From Alphaproteobacteria bacterium (lineage in GTDB: Bacteria; Pseudomonadota; Alphaproteobacteria; SMXS01), in NCBI GenBank assembly GCA_028284945.1, contig JANQQJ010000027.1, positions 1 to 33,040 on the forward strand: DNA of 33,040 bases. The letters run 5' to 3'. The notes under the pieces were generated by a model. It did not search any database. It saw nothing but the letters and a program-made list of their open reading frames with translations, and was not told where the DNA came from. The translations under genes and the position numbers were made by a program. Shown here piece by piece: positions 913-32,038 of the stretch; position 1 is the first letter of the stretch; every line of letters begins with the position of its first letter.

Positions 913-2559
913 ATGGAACGCGAATCGATGGAGTTCGACGTGGTGATCGTAGGGGCCGGCCCGGCGGGCCTGGCGGCGGCGATCCGGCTGAAACAGCTTT
1001 GTGCGGAGAACGATGCCGATTTCAGTGTATGCGTGCTGGAAAAGGGCTCCGAAGTGGGCGCCCATATTCTGTCAGGCGCGGTATTTGAGCCCCGTGCGCT
1101 GGGCGAACTGATTCCCGATTGGAAGGAACAGGGCGCGCCGATCAACACGCCTTGTGAACATGACAAGTTCATGATGCTGACGGAGAAGGGCTCGATGGGC
1201 GTGCCCGGCTTCATCATGCCGCCGGTGCTGCACAATAAGGGCAACTATATTGTCAGCCTGGGCAATGTTTGCCGCTGGCTGGGTGAGCAGGCGGAAGCAG
1301 CAGGCGTTGAGGTCTATCCGGGATTTGCCGCCGCTGAAGTGCTCTATCATGACGATGGCAGCGTTAAAGGGGTTGCCACCGGCGATATGGGCATCGGCAA
1401 GGATGGCGAGCATAAGCCGATGTATGAGCCGGGCCTGGAACTGCATGCCAAATATACCTTTTTTGCCGAGGGCGCGCGGGGATCGCTGAGCCGCCAACTG
1501 ACAGACAAATTCGGACTGCGCGACGACAGTGGCCCGCAGAAATACGGCATCGGTATCAAGGAACTGTGGGAGATCGACCCGGCGAAGCACAGGCCTGGCT
1601 ATGTGCAGCACACCTTTGGCTGGCCGATGGACACCAAGACCTATGGCGGGTCGTTCCTCTATCACTTCGATGAGAACCTGGTGTCGGTCGGCTTCGTCAT
1701 GGGGCTGGATTACGCCAACCCCTATCTGTCGCCCTATGACGAATTCCAGCGTTACAAGACGCATCCGGCGATCCGACCGACGTTTGAGGGCGGTAAGCGC
1801 ATTTCTTATGGCGCCCGCGCAATCACGGCCGGCGGCTTCCAGTCCGTTCCGAAGCTGACATTTCCGGGCGGCGCGTTGATCGGTTGTTCGGCGGGCTTCG
1901 TTAACGTGCCGAAAATCAAGGGCTCCAACAATGCCATGAAGACCGGCATGATGGCTGCAGAAGCTGCCTTCGAGGCGCTCAAAGGGGGTGCCGAAGGGCA
2001 CGATGAGCTAACGGGCTATACCAAGGCCTATGAAAACTCTTGGGTTTATAAAGATCTGAAAGCAGTCCGGAATGCCAAGCCCGCTTTCGGCTTTGGTCTT
2101 TATGCCGGCGTTCTGATGTCGGGGATCGAAGGTTGGCTGTTTGGCAAACTGCCCTTCACGCTGAAGCACAAAAAGGCCGATCATGAAGGATTGCGGCCGG
2201 CGTCGGAGTTTGAACCGATTGACTATCCCAAGCCGGATGGCGAGGTCTCGTTTGACAAGCTGTCGTCAGTCTTTATCTCAAACACCAATCATGAAGAAGA
2301 TCAGCCGGCGCATCTGACGTTAAAGGATGCCTCCGTTCCGATTGAGACCAACCTGGCGCTCTATGATGCACCGGAGCAACGCTATTGCCCGGCGGGTGTT
2401 TACGAAATCGTGCGAGAGGACGACGGATCCAACCCGCAATTGCAGATCAATGCGCAGAACTGCGTGCATTGTAAGACTTGCGATATCAAGGATCCGACGC
2501 AAAATATTGTATGGGTCACGCCGGAAGGCAGCGGCGGGCCGAATTATCCGAACATGTAA
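913..2559 (+). CDS. Electron transfer flavoprotein-ubiquinone oxidoreductase
   Basis: This 548-residue enzyme passes electrons from reduced ETF (fatty-acid and amino-acid acyl-CoA dehydrogenation, dimethylglycine and similar oxidations) to the membrane ubiquinone pool. The N-terminal FAD-binding Rossmann motif G-A-G-P-A-G is at residues 14-19. The central part carries the family's E-K-G...G-A-H-I-L-S-G segment and the ubiquinone/membrane region. The C-terminal ferredoxin-like domain supplies the four cluster cysteines (C-P-A-G-V-Y-E, then [12 protein letters not shown]) and ends with the characteristic G-G-P-N-Y-P-N-M. Length matches bacterial and mitochondrial ETF-QO. The start at 913 is supported by AGGAAG upstream; an ATG at 928 is less well placed. 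The TPR gene follows after eight bases, so co-transcription is likely. Confidence 0.95.
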
Positions 2560-2567
2560 GGCAATCG

Positions 2568-4295
2568 ATGGGCACACAACGGATCGTAGACAGGTTACTC
2601 GGGCTTGCAGCCATCATCACCATTGGTGCGCTTTGGGTGGTGGCCGTACCGTCGACGGCCTCCGCGTCGCAGGAAGCCGGTGTTATTCAGTCCGATGAAT
2701 ATGGCGATTATCTCGCGGCGCGATTTGCCATCACCAACCGGGATACAACCTCGGCTGCTGACTTCTATATCCAGGCGGTTGCCAGCGACCCGTTTAATGT
2801 CCCGCTGATCCATCAGGCGTTTTCGCTGGCGGTGGCTAGCGGCCGTCATGACGATGCGGCCCGGCTGGCCCGCCGGTTGGCAACGCTGGATCAGAAGTCG
2901 ACCGGGTTGATGGAGCTGGTTTTGTTGGTCGACGATCTGCGTGCCGAGAAATTGGCCGACGCGCGGACGCGGATTACTGAAATGCCGCAAACAGGGATTG
3001 TCGCGCTGATGGCACCGTTGGTTTCGGCCTGGCTCCACGTGGCAGAAGGGAATACGGAAGCCGCGCTGGCCGATATTAATTCACTTGAGGGTAAGCAGGG
3101 GTTTGAAGTCTTCAGACGGACCCACAGGGCCTACATTCTCGACTATGCGGGGCAGGTGGATGAGGCAGAGAAAGCCTATGGAGACGCCATCGCCTTGCAG
3201 AAGGGCCGGGATCTTCGCCTGGTCATTGCATTCAGCCAGTTCCTTCACCGTCACGGCAACAGGGACGGTGCCGAACAGGTGCTGACAGGCTACCTGCAGA
3301 ACTATCCCAGCAATGTCCTGATCGAAGCCGCGCGCAAAGAGCTGGATGCCGCGGACACTTTGCCGCTGATGGTCGATACCGTCGCGCAGGGTACCGCTGA
3401 GGCGTTCTTTAGCACCGGGCAGGCGCTGGCCAACGAACGGTCGAGCACGTCGGCTGTGGTTTATCTGCGCATGGCGCTGGCTCTGGACCCGGACTTTTCA
3501 GTTGCCGCCCTATTGTTGGGTGATGTCCTGGAACGCGACGGACGGCTGGAAGCAGCGCTCGAAGCCTATGAGATGGTCGTCGACCACCCGATTCTAGGAT
3601 GGGATGCCCGGTTCGAGTCCGCCACGCTCACGGCGCAGATGGATCGCGCAGACGAGGCGATTGAGCTTCTGAAAAAGATGGCTATCGAGCGCCCGGCCAA
3701 TACCAATCTGCTGTCGTCGCTGGCGGACATCTTGCGTGCTGAGAACCGTTTTGAGGAGTCGACGGTCTATTATGACAAGGTCGTCGATGCCCTGAAGACA
3801 CCTTCGGAACGGCACTGGACGCTGTTCTATGCCCGGGGGATTGCGCTAGAGCGTCAGGGCCGTTGGGATGCCGCCGAGGCGGATTTTCTCAAGGCGCTGG
3901 TCCTAAAACCCGATCAGCCGCTGGTGCTGAATTACCTGGGCTATAGCTGGATCGAACAGGGTGTAAACCTCGACCGCGCACTTGAGATGATTGAGCGCGC
4001 CGTGGAGCAACGGCCGGAAGACGGCTATATCGTCGACAGTCTGGGCTGGGCGCTCTATCGCACCGGAAAATTCGAAGAGGCGACGGCCTGGCTGGAAAAG
4101 GCAGTCGTGCTGCGTCCGGAGGATCCGACCATCAACGATCATCTGGGTGACGCCTATTGGGCGGTGGGCCGTCAACTGGAAGCAACCTTTCAGTGGCGCC
4201 ACGCCCTGGCCATGGACCCGGAGGATAAGGACCGGGACCGGATCAAAAACAAGATCCGCTACGGGCTCGAAAGCGAGCAACGCACCGAGAACTAG
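2568..4295 (+). CDS. Exported tetratricopeptide-repeat protein
   Basis: The open frame reaches back to 2478, but the ATG at 2568 is preferred: it follows the ETF-QO stop by eight bases, has AAGG just upstream, and makes the protein begin with a clear signal peptide (basic start, hydrophobic stretch about residues 11-28, small-residue A-S-A cleavage region near 32-34). The 575-residue product is built almost wholly of helical TPR-type repeats. The clearest are in the last 200 residues (for example A-L-V-L-K-P-D-Q-P-L-V-L-N-Y-L-G-Y and the two similar units after it). Such alphaproteobacterial periplasmic TPR proteins next to ispE are scaffolds without a known reaction. It ends one base before the ispE GTG codon. 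Confidence 0.88.
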   Translation: MGTQRIVDRLLGLAAIITIGALWVVAVPSTASASQEAGVIQSDEYGDYLAARFAITNRDTTSAADFYIQAVASDPFNVPLIHQAFSLAVASGRHDDAARLARRLATLDQKSTGLMELVLLVDDLRAEKLADARTRITEMPQTGIVALMAPLVSAWLHVAEGNTEAALADINSLEGKQGFEVFRRTHRAYILDYAGQVDEAEKAYGDAIALQKGRDLRLVIAFSQFLHRHGNRDGAEQVLTGYLQNYPSNVLIEAARKELDAADTLPLMVDTVAQGTAEAFFSTGQALANERSSTSAVVYLRMALALDPDFSVAALLLGDVLERDGRLEAALEAYEMVVDHPILGWDARFESATLTAQMDRADEAIELLKKMAIERPANTNLLSSLADILRAENRFEESTVYYDKVVDALKTPSERHWTLFYARGIALERQGRWDAAEADFLKALVLKPDQPLVLNYLGYSWIEQGVNLDRALEMIERAVEQRPEDGYIVDSLGWALYRTGKFEEATAWLEKAVVLRPEDPTINDHLGDAYWAVGRQLEATFQWRHALAMDPEDKDRDRIKNKIRYGLESEQRTEN

Positions 4296-30210: not shown

Positions 30211-31692
30211 TCACTTTGTGTGTGCAACAATCCGTTTCTTACTGGGGCCCTTCTTTCGCCGTTCTAGTGCGCGCATAAGCTCCATTTTCGCGCGGTTTAG
30301 GATGATTTCTTTATGCCCCGATATCTGATGAGTAATGCCCTGGCCAAGTGGTTCCATCAATTTCGTAGCGCGGTTTGCGTAAGTCCAAAAAGTCCAATTT
30401 CTATAGTCTTGGTATTTTTCCTCAAATCGCTCTACCCGTCCGAATGCCTTAACCAACTCTTCCAAGTTCATTTTCGTCCAAAGGTCTGCCAGATCCTTAT
30501 CTGGATAACGGCGTGCGACTGACACAGCCTCTCTTCGAGCGCGTCTTGCTACCTTCCGATACAGGTTCGACATTGTACGGTCGCGTAGATAGACCTTTCG
30601 ACCGTCAAATCGAAACCCTAGGTACTCAAGGCCGTCTGGGCCGTTGTCACCAGAAGGTCGTGTACTACCTTGCTGGCCATGATTGACTTCAAAACTGAGA
30701 ATGTCGGTCTTTGAGCTGTTAATTCTGATTTCGTCACCGTACTCTTCGATTTCATCAGATACCTTAGACGCAAACGCTTCGGCGGACTTTGGCGATATTG
30801 GAAGGACGAAAAGCAAGTCGTCGGAGTAGCGCCAGTAATGGCCGCCTAACTCGGAAGCAGTCCTGTGAGCCCAAGTGTCGAAGTCGATTAGGTACAGGTT
30901 GGCCAGCAAGTCTGAAATTGGGGCGCCCTGAGGAATGCCGTAGGGCTTGTGGTTTTGCTGGATCAGTGACTTTTGACCGTCCCCACCCGCAACAATGTTG
31001 CGAAACTCCTTTCCCGTGCAAAGCAGTTTCGGAATCTGTCCGAGCGGCGTAACGAACCCCTCTACGGTTTTGCCTGATCTTGTGCGCCACTTTGGTGCAA
31101 TGTGCCCTAAGCGGCGATAAAGTTCGTCTTGCATGACGAAGGCGTAAGTAGTGACAGCCTTGAAGACTTGAAAATGGTCGGGGGGCAGTTTCGCTTCGCC
31201 CAACAACTTGCACCAGAGCGATTTGAGTCTCCGATGGTCGAGCTTCTCGAAGTACTTGCTAATGTCCAGCGATATTGTCGCGCAGTCCCCAAGCTCGCGT
31301 ATGCGTTCAAATGCATCATACGCGAAATGAATATTTGATTTTCCACCAGTGCAATCGGATAGCGGGATTGATCGGTACGCAAGGACACAGTCTTGTAGGC
31401 CTCTATCGCGAAGTTCGGCTTCGTAGAGATTCGATAAAGTGGAGCGATAGCGGGCAAAGATCGCAGCGTCCCGATGAGCCGCATAGCGGAGTTTCCTGCT
31501 CTTTGGTTTACCCTGTTCGCCTTTTTGTGCGAACTTGTTCCAGCTCTGGTCGAAGCGTATAAACGGAAAAAACGGATGCTTTGCGACCTGATCCGGGTCA
31601 TTTGCGAGTGCCGCGGCGGCATCGGCAGTGAGCACTGGGTCAAAGTGGGGATACTGCTTTAAATCGCGTTCCCTAGGTTGCCATTCCTCCAA
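30211..31692 (-). CDS. Reverse transcriptase, probable antiviral (DRT/UG-Abi type)
   Basis: The 493-residue protein has a full RT palm: motif A with L-D-I-S-K-Y-F-E-K-L-D-H (catalytic Asp143), motif B G-I-P-Q-G-A-P-I-S-D-L-L-A-N (252 on), motif C R-Y-S-D-D-L-L-F (YSDD 289-292), a K-T-D-I-L-S-F motif D region, and L-E-Y-L-G-F motif E (355 on), then a basic, Trp/Arg-rich helical C-terminus. The N-terminus (H-P-F-F-P-F-I-R, R-Y-A-A-H-R-D-A-A-I-F) has the pattern I associate with defence-associated DRT enzymes. No maturase domain, retron NAxxH motif or DGR S-Q motif is seen. Start: TTG at 31692 is preferred because AAGGAGGG lies nine bases upstream; GTG at 31758 is the alternative. No partner protein gene is adjacent. 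Codon use is visibly more AT-rich than in its neighbours, suggesting transfer. Type (DRT2-, DRT9-like or other) is inference. Confidence 0.88.
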   Translation of the reverse strand: MEEWQPRERDLKQYPHFDPVLTADAAAALANDPDQVAKHPFFPFIRFDQSWNKFAQKGEQGKPKSRKLRYAAHRDAAIFARYRSTLSNLYEAELRDRGLQDCVLAYRSIPLSDCTGGKSNIHFAYDAFERIRELGDCATISLDISKYFEKLDHRRLKSLWCKLLGEAKLPPDHFQVFKAVTTYAFVMQDELYRRLGHIAPKWRTRSGKTVEGFVTPLGQIPKLLCTGKEFRNIVAGGDGQKSLIQQNHKPYGIPQGAPISDLLANLYLIDFDTWAHRTASELGGHYWRYSDDLLFVLPISPKSAEAFASKVSDEIEEYGDEIRINSSKTDILSFEVNHGQQGSTRPSGDNGPDGLEYLGFRFDGRKVYLRDRTMSNLYRKVARRARREAVSVARRYPDKDLADLWTKMNLEELVKAFGRVERFEEKYQDYRNWTFWTYANRATKLMEPLGQGITHQISGHKEIILNRAKMELMRALERRKKGPSKKRIVAHTK

Positions 31693-32038
31693 TTCTTTTG
31701 GCCCTCCTTCGAGAGGGGGCGGCGAACACCGGTGCCTCCGGTTATGCCACCGCCCCACACTGCTATTACGAGGTTCTTGCGGACCTCTGGATCGGCATCT
31801 TCTATCGACCTAACGGTATATAATGTCTTGAGAGCGCTTGGCGCTCCTTACATCCGGCAGCAACGAGGAATTGCGGAGATCACTATGGACCTACTCATGC
31901 AACTCGCCGAAGTCATATTCGGAGTTGACAGTTACAACCGTGTCTCCGTGCCCCCAAAACGCGAGCGCCATCGTGCACGGATATCGTCCGATTAAATCCG
32001 ACGATCAACTCGAGGTGGTGATGCTTTCAAATACTTCA
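31693..32038 (-). ncRNA. Candidate structured non-coding RNA / leader upstream of the reverse transcriptase
   Basis: Between a putative promoter (about 32073-32045) and the reverse transcriptase there are some 346 bases without a convincing gene but with a series of hairpins on the minus-strand transcript. These are ATCGTC/GACGAT with inner GAT/ATC (32005-31983), CGGAG/CTCCG (31948-31920), GAGCGC-CAA-GCGCTC (31846-31832), GAGGT/ACCTC (31787-31770), GGGGCGG/CCGCCCC enclosing ACCGG/CCGGT (31756-31716), and CCCTCT-CGAA-GGAGGG (31717-31702), which hides the ribosome binding site. A template RNA directly upstream of the enzyme is the known layout of DRT2- and DRT9-like systems. Its ends and any cDNA product are unproven. 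Confidence 0.4.

What the first reader, a model, noticed from the sequence alone, without database searches (positions are those of the whole stretch)
31693..32038. About 350 bases of nested hairpins upstream of the RT, candidate template RNA
At least six inverted repeats follow one another between the putative promoter and the RT start, on the same strand, with no convincing gene. In DRT2 a template RNA in this position is copied into repeated cDNA; in DRT9 it supports poly-A cDNA synthesis. Arm positions are given in the ncRNA feature.
Basis: partly seen in the sequence, partly recalled or inferred. Interest (0 to 1): 0.68.

Follow-up and report, generated by a model that had tools for sequence, protein, structure and literature searches.

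The report
Hidden repeat-gene template beside DRT2 RT
The hairpin-rich DNA in front of this reverse transcriptase most likely encodes an RNA from which the enzyme builds a hidden, endlessly repeated gene during virus attack, as in the known DRT2 defence system, but in a divergent branch that lacks the known 'ACA' jump signal.

Summary
The RT (30211-31692, minus strand, TTG start) is a divergent DRT2/UG2 enzyme; the roughly 280 nt before it encode its template RNA. The hairpins alone are barely above chance. Homologues supply the evidence: a 3' scaffold (buttress, tower, pseudoknot) with strong covariation, a 5' handle hairpin, and between them a 129-nt template (31810-31938). Read on the opposite strand, the template has TATAAT near one end and TTGACA near the other. 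Joined head to tail with 17-bp spacing they form a promoter and a stop-free 43-codon repeat with ribosome-binding site and ATG: a neo gene. The same design holds in 70 of 72 scored loci (13 repeat lengths, all multiples of three); two are off by one base. The KpnDRT2 ACA jump motif is absent; instead both template ends share a dinucleotide in 45 of 50 non-redundant loci, AC in 43. A preprint found Neo hard to annotate in divergent DRT2 clades; this mostly alphaproteobacterial clade looks like such a case. Against: no codon-level selection on Neo is detectable, and nothing was shown experimentally. A new variant of a known kind.

The parts
30211..31692 (-). DRT2-family reverse transcriptase, TTG start at 31690-31692, 493 aa, YSDD active site
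   Evidence: PADLOC Drt2 6.4e-134; NCBIfam Drt2 367 bits, below its cut-off of 390; PDB 9c0i 4e-61; alignment with homologues supports the start
31708..31986 (-). predicted ncRNA core, about 280 nt; both ends inferred by homology, the 5' end is unsettled
   Evidence: 5' handle, template, 3' scaffold CM hit 31711-31826 at 4.1e-17; the KpnDRT2 ncRNA is 280 nt (PMC12039810, section read)
31945..31981 (-). 5' handle hairpin, arms TCCGTGC/GCACGGA
   Evidence: a hairpin at this place in 36 of 50 representatives against 9.0 expected
31810..31938 (-). template region, 129 nt, read antisense as the neo repeat unit (43 codons); exact junction inferred
31819..31824 (+). -10 element TATAAT of the reconstituted neo promoter
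   Evidence: conserved in homologues
31925..31930 (+). -35 element TTGACA of the reconstituted neo promoter
   Evidence: conserved in homologues
31875..31878 (+). Shine-Dalgarno GGAG of neo, 6 nt before the ATG
   Evidence: 33 of 50 representatives have such a pair in frame, 2.0 expected
31885..31887 (+). ATG, putative neo start codon
31937..31938 (+). AC dinucleotide at the end of the repeat (5' side of the template RNA), inferred jump seed
   Evidence: same dinucleotide on both sides in 45 of 50 representatives
31808..31809 (+). AC dinucleotide just beyond the template's 3' end, inferred re-annealing site
   Evidence: sequence
31794..31797 (-). pseudoknot 5' arm TGCC
   Evidence: all 5 pseudoknot column pairs show changes on both sides in A2
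31733..31736 (-). pseudoknot 3' arm GGCA, in the loop of the inner tower hairpin
31770..31787 (-). buttress-like hairpin GAGGT/ACCTC
31716..31756 (-). tower-like hairpin GGGGCGG/CCGCCCC with inner hairpin ACCGG/CCGGT (31728-31742)

Best explanation
This is a DRT2-type defence locus. Shown here by comparison: an ncRNA precedes the RT; it has a conserved 5' handle, a covarying pseudoknotted 3' scaffold and a fast-changing middle; the middle, read antisense and joined to itself, gives a 17-bp-spaced promoter and a closed stop-free frame. Inferred from KpnDRT2: the RT binds the scaffold, copies the 129-nt template from its 3' side, reaches its 5' end (cDNA ...AAC), jumps back to a matching AC just 3' of the template, and repeats, making concatemeric cDNA. 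After second-strand synthesis each junction rebuilds TTGACA-N17-TATAAT, and host RNA polymerase makes an mRNA whose 43-codon repeat (LTVYNVLRALGAPYIRQQRGIAEITMDLLMQLAEVIFGVDSYN, repeated) is translated into a hydrophobic Neo protein that arrests the infected cell. The clade differs from KpnDRT2 in the jump seed (AC, not ACA), in the range of repeat lengths and, in the window, in the distance from the -10 to the start codon.
For: RT family. Covariation: 23 pairs, 21 with changes on both sides, 92.6% of cells paired, 0 of 500 shuffles reach any of the five measures. CM R1 finds the scaffold before the RT in 43 of 55 held-out sources at E<0.01, and nowhere else in the window. Neo: 70 of 72 scored loci, or 50 of 52 clusters, have a repeat length divisible by three, and the same frame is open in all of these; shuffles expect 7.6 of 50 open. 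0 stops in 2182 codons inside templates against 0.026 and 0.060 per codon just outside in the same frame (openness inside is also what one search reported, so the contrast with the outside is the new information). In-frame SD+ATG 33 of 50, 2.0 expected. The neo frame is the most hydrophobic in 48 of 50. The only TATAAT...TTGACA pair with both hexamers perfect at this range (unit 83-192 nt) on either strand of the window is this one. A further locus, G366, whose template was not used to set up the signature, fits: 123 nt, open, with a CM hit.
Against: No third-codon-position bias and pN/pS 0.82 in the neo frame, not lower than in the other frames, in 9 independent pairs. Two loci (L069, L071) have lengths one base off. 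Four loci of the clade (L035, L048, L052, L066) gave no convincing pair of promoter elements under a relaxed search, although weak in-frame candidates exist in L052 and L066. The KpnDRT2 ACA motifs are absent. A stem between the two template ends (SL2 analogue) was sought and not established. The NCBIfam Drt2 cut-off is missed. The 17-bp spacing is assumed, not measured. No RNA, cDNA or protein was observed.
Confidence: 0.87

Rival explanations
1. The hairpins are a 5' leader or attenuator that regulates RT translation, not a template.
For: The RT ribosome-binding site GGAGGG (31702-31707) can pair with CCCTC at the RNA's 3' end (sequence).
Against: A leader does not explain a stop-free frame with lengths in multiples of three and promoter elements in inverted order in 70 of 72 loci, nor the pseudoknotted scaffold placed as in KpnDRT2.
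Confidence: 0.05
2. An ordinary protein gene on the + strand (105-aa ORF 31678-31995) overlaps the RT leader antisense.
For: The frame is open for 105 codons in the window.
Against: In the 50 representatives the same frame has 0 stops in 2182 codons inside the template but 0.026 and 0.060 per codon just outside; 40 of 50 meet a stop within 60 nt beyond the -35 end. No Pfam, NCBIfam or PADLOC match.
Confidence: 0.03
3. A template RNA of another kind: DRT9-like homopolymer, DRT10-like short repeat, or a retron msr-msd.
For: Other class 2 DRTs also carry an upstream ncRNA (papers read in part).
Against: RT scores: Drt2 446 bits, UG17 (DRT10) 61, Drt9 41, retron models listed 36-41. The closed 93-150 nt frame and the split promoter are features reported for DRT2.
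Confidence: 0.03
4. Chance hairpins in a GC-rich spacer.
For: Folding energy and number of inverted repeats are near chance.
Against: Covariation: 128 cells with changes on both sides against 35 in shuffles, 0 of 500 as high.
Confidence: 0.01

Closest known systems
Klebsiella pneumoniae DRT2 (KpnDRT2), PMC12039810 and PMC11100668; PDB 9c0i and others
   Same: Single RT gene with an upstream ncRNA of about 280 nt; 5' handle, central template, 3' scaffold with buttress, tower and a pseudoknot whose first arm follows the template; antisense TATAAT and TTGACA brought to 17-bp spacing at the repeat junction; repeat divisible by three with one stop-free frame; hydrophobic Neo.
   Different: Distant RT (phmmer 4e-61; identity not computed). 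No ACA-1/ACA-2; a shared AC instead, with the inferred junction 8 nt after TTGACA (6 in the Kpn-like loci). In the window the neo ATG lies 60 nt after the -10 instead of 13. 5' handle loop of 23 nt in the window. Repeats of 93-150 nt in the clade against 111-129 nt named for 42 Kpn relatives (PMC12039810, section 8 read).
DRT10 / UG17 (PMC12632851)
   Same: Repeat addition directed by short matching sequences at the two template ends, only 2 nt long in some systems (passages read).
   Different: Much shorter repeats (9 nt in Eco3), RT-primed, with a SLATT partner gene; the RT profile match here is weak (61 bits).
Rhizobium beringeri Drt2, CP140798 (L096)
   Same: Annotated drt2; antisense TTGACA and TATTGT with an open 129-nt unit and an AAC match at the junction.
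   Different: RT only 30% identical and outside the window's clade in the quick tree, on a long branch.

Membership tests
DRT2 (UG2), broad sense | RT of the Drt2 family | tested here: met
   PADLOC Drt2 6.4e-134 and 3.9e-99 for its two models, next best family 8.5e-18; PDB KpnDRT2 4e-61
DRT2 (UG2), broad sense | NCBIfam NF041746 equivalog cut-off (an annotation threshold rather than a biological feature) | tested here: not met
   367 bits against a cut-off of 390: a divergent member by that model
DRT2 (UG2), broad sense | structured ncRNA with a 3' pseudoknot directly upstream of the RT | tested here: met
   (sequence evidence; expression not tested)
DRT2 (UG2), broad sense | template antisense carries -10 and -35 elements that reach 17-bp spacing when concatenated, with unit length divisible by 3 | tested here: met
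   window 129 nt; 70 of 72 scored loci
[quoted passage not shown]
DRT2 (UG2), broad sense | phage-triggered concatemeric cDNA, Neo toxicity, anti-phage defence | not testable with these tools
   needs experiment
KpnDRT2-like subgroup | ACA-1 and ACA-2 (TGT in cDNA) at the template ends | tested here: not met
   position 6 after TTGACA is A in 49 of 50 representatives where TGT would need T; the window reads TTGACAGTTACAAC. All seven Kpn-like loci examined have TGT at that place
KpnDRT2-like subgroup | RT inside the subgroup's clade | tested here: not met
   the window falls in a separate 77-row clade, SH-aLRT 97; the Kpn-like rows lie across branches with support 99 (quick tree)
KpnDRT2-like subgroup | DNA primer attached to the ncRNA 3' end | not testable with these tools
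   needs sequencing of RT-bound nucleic acids
DRT9 | RT of the Drt9 family | tested here: not met
   41 bits against 446 for Drt2

The most novel reading that the evidence does not exclude
A large, mostly alphaproteobacterial DRT2 clade makes Neo genes by a template jump that does not use the ACA motif: a two-base AC match (AAC against GAC or AAC, with a linked change to AG on both sides in a Rhizobiales subclade) resets the RT. The rule common to DRT2 would then be closure of promoter spacing and reading frame at the junction, not a fixed jump sequence.
Probability: 0.7. Interest if true: 0.62.

Novelty: new variant of a known kind. Interest (0 to 1): 0.52.

Why it matters
[quoted passage not shown] Here, for one divergent clade, a neo gene can be read out in 70 of 72 scored loci once the ACA rule is dropped. 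If true, this makes the question of how a minimal match resets an RT over about 130 nt directly testable, supplies dozens of new Neo sequences, and shows that hidden genes can be found by promoter spacing and frame closure alone.

Tried and rejected
Single-sequence folding and counting of inverted repeats: uninformative. Rfam at gathering thresholds: only a tRNA in the window. A single-protein scan of genome contigs and of viral contigs found no relatives; the four-row alignment did. Codon-position test for selection on Neo: negative. Search for a conserved stem between the two template ends (SL2 analogue): one column pair stood out at z 5.2, no continuous helix, so it is not claimed. Search for the RNA's own promoter: none by consensus; homologue flanks suggest TTGAA-type promoters at varying distances, unsettled. 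Neighbouring genes in relatives: the enoyl-CoA hydratase gene is present in 10 of 13 and the DUF3126 gene in 5 of 13 genomes searched (own genome included), on different contigs where both were found in a relative (G009, G013), so no empty site was established.

Rows dropped before counts: of 85 loci (window included) 13 had no scored motif pair: L024 (contig ends 91 nt before the RT match), L032, L035, L048, L052, L054, L066 and the six Kpn-like L083-L088. L032 and L054 fit under a relaxed search. For one search, 72 loci were collapsed to 52; two of these (L069, L071) are not divisible by three and were left out of the frame counts (50). Some of the 72 have weak motif scores (L080 for instance). 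The covariation set A2 was 30 loci that I chose for alignable scaffolds, out of 72. The tree used 91 of 93 proteins, those of at least 300 aa; L030 and L046 were left out as short. The four loci in which I first saw the pattern (window, L002, L007, L008) are among the 72; without them it is 66 of 68.

Full report
What was claimed.

The RT. The gene lies on the minus strand; the best start is TTG at 31690-31692 behind GGAGGG, and homologues align from there. It matches Drt2 of PADLOC at 6.4e-134, far above any other RT family, and solved KpnDRT2 chains at 4e-61. It scores 367 bits against NCBI's Drt2 cut-off of 390, so annotation by that model would miss it. The nearest relatives are about 50% identical (best segment 53%), in alphaproteobacteria such as Azospirillum, Telmatospirillum and Rhizobiales. 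In a quick tree of 91 RTs the window sits in a 77-row clade (SH-aLRT 97) separate from the Kpn-like gammaproteobacterial loci. Occurrence is patchy: 1 of 10 genomes of the window's family (the window's own) and 5 of 385 of its class (any relative at 1e-20, own genome included), as expected of defence genes.

The hairpins by themselves. Thirteen inverted repeats exist, but shuffled sequence gives nearly as many and folds nearly as well. The observation alone would not carry the interpretation.

The structure by comparison. An alignment of 30 of them (window included) over the stretch between template and RT (A2) was tested with a named structure: buttress, tower, inner hairpin and pseudoknot. 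Of 23 pairs 21 show changes on both sides, 92.6% of cells pair, and none of 500 shuffles reaches any of the five measures; sliding the partners by 1-3 columns drops pairing to 41-51%. All five pseudoknot pairs covary. The structure was drawn from one of these sequences (L025), which favours it in the sliding control, and related sequences can exceed the shuffles to some degree without structure; the size of the excess (128 against 35 cells with double changes) is hard to explain that way. RNAalifold on its own predicted the same nested helices. A covariance model from A2 finds the element just before the RT in 73 of 85 sources at E<0.01, 43 of them among the 55 not used to build it, and at no other place in the window. 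The Kpn pseudoknot (G155-C159 with G250-C254; PMC12596737, passages read) has the same placement: first arm just behind the template. On the 5' side a hairpin ending some 6-11 nt before the template is present in 36 of 50 representatives (9.0 expected), with different letters in different loci.

The template. In KpnDRT2 the neo gene is antisense to the ncRNA; TATAAT lies near one end and TTGACA near the other, and concatenation brings them to 17 bp (PMC12039810, sections 7, 8 and 9 read). In the window the + strand has TATAAT at 31819-31824 and TTGACA at 31925-31930, the only pair with both hexamers perfect at such a distance on either strand of 33 kb. With 17-bp spacing the unit is 129 nt, and one frame is open through the junction whichever split is chosen; 16 or 18 bp would not be divisible by three. 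Azospirillum, Paracoccus and G131 homologues give 132, 141 and 120 nt, each with an open frame (for Paracoccus in 14 of the 18 possible splits). A position-weight scan that knew nothing of reading frames scored 72 of 85 loci; 70 have a unit divisible by three with the neo frame open, in 13 different lengths from 93 to 150 nt, and the two others are one base off. After collapsing similar units, 50 of 52 are divisible by three and the same frame, the one that reads the -10 as TAT-ACT, is open in 50 of 50, against 2 and 1 for the other frames and 7.6 expected from shuffles. Inside the templates there are 0 stops in 2182 codons; just outside, in the same frame, 0.026 and 0.060 per codon. That speaks against a plain linear antisense gene. 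An in-frame ATG with a GGAG-type ribosome-binding site occurs in 33 of 50 (2.0 expected); in the window GGAG is at 31875-31878 and ATG at 31885. The frame is the most hydrophobic one in 48 of 50, in line with the hydrophobic bias reported for KpnDRT2. A further locus, G366, fits without adjustment (123 nt, open).

What differs. The ACA motifs that bracket the Kpn template are missing: the base that should be T in TGT is A in 49 of 50. Instead the dinucleotide seven and eight bases after TTGACA recurs at the matching place before the -10 in 45 of 50, as AC in 43 and AG in 2 (high side AAC in 44 of 50; low side mostly GAC or AAC). The AG pairs belong to a Rhizobiales subclade in which both sides changed (L026, L028, L029, L033, L034, L068, L070). 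Identity at that base within loci exceeds permutation (p 0.006), though shared ancestry could produce this. I infer that the jump uses this two-base match; DRT10 systems with 2-nt matches are on record (PMC12632851, passages read). In the window the neo ATG lies 60 nt behind the -10 rather than 13, and the handle has a 23-nt loop.

Against. Neo shows no codon-level selection: mismatches by codon position 41/34/35 and pN/pS 0.82, not lower than in the other frames. Published work also notes that the template is the least conserved part and that most conserved Neo residues reflect nucleotide-level signals (PMC12039810, sections 7 and 8). Four clade members could not be read convincingly and two are off by one. 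No stem between the template ends was established.

Literature. I searched the held library with DRT2+reverse transcriptase+neo, DRT2+ncRNA+template jumping, UG2+reverse transcriptase+alphaproteobacteria, DRT2+never-ending ORF, DRT2+Rhizobium and UG2+ncRNA+defense-associated reverse transcriptase, and saw no description of Neo in this clade in the listings or passages read. Read: PMC12039810, outline and sections 4 (part 1), 7, 8, 9 (part 1), 10, 23 and 41; passages of PMC11100668, PMC12596737 and PMC12632851; the others only in listings. Supplements and any later journal version of PMC11100668 were not seen, so the clade may be listed there. That preprint says that covariance models reached more divergent clades but that Neo annotation was more challenging.

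Verdict. The finding is a divergent DRT2 ncRNA with a hidden neo gene: a new variant of a known kind. The comparative evidence for ncRNA, template and frame is strong; the mechanism is by analogy; the jump seed is a prediction.

Noticed in passing
window 31702-31717: The RNA's 3' end CCCTC can pair with GAGGG of the RT's own ribosome-binding site (CCCTCTCGAAGGAGGG), and the Azospirillum and Telmatospirillum homologues look similar; possible control of RT translation by ncRNA processing.
   Followed up: no
L006 / L003 (genome G366): The RT gene is split between two frames (ORFs 2193-3044 and 1723-2196 on the minus strand of L006) while the ncRNA scaffold and the neo frame are intact.
   Followed up: partly
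L089 (viral contigs IMGVR_UViG_2576861823_000003): A viral contig carries this system, nearly identical to the Sulfitobacter locus L038.
   Followed up: no
L026 and L029: RT and neo unit are nearly identical in Agrobacterium larrymoorei and Allorhizobium taibaishanense while the far upstream flanks differ, which suggests horizontal transfer.
   Followed up: no
L069 and L071: Conserved promoter elements but a unit length one base off a multiple of three: a shifted junction or spacing, or broken systems.
   Followed up: partly
L096 (Rhizobium beringeri plasmid CP140798): A distant Drt2 (30% identical) also gives an open 129-nt unit with an AAC match at the junction, so the AAC type may extend beyond this clade.
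   Followed up: partly
window 31983-32005: Strong inverted repeat ATCGTCCGATT/AATCCGACGAT just upstream of the handle, not seen in the homologue flanks; role unknown.
   Followed up: no
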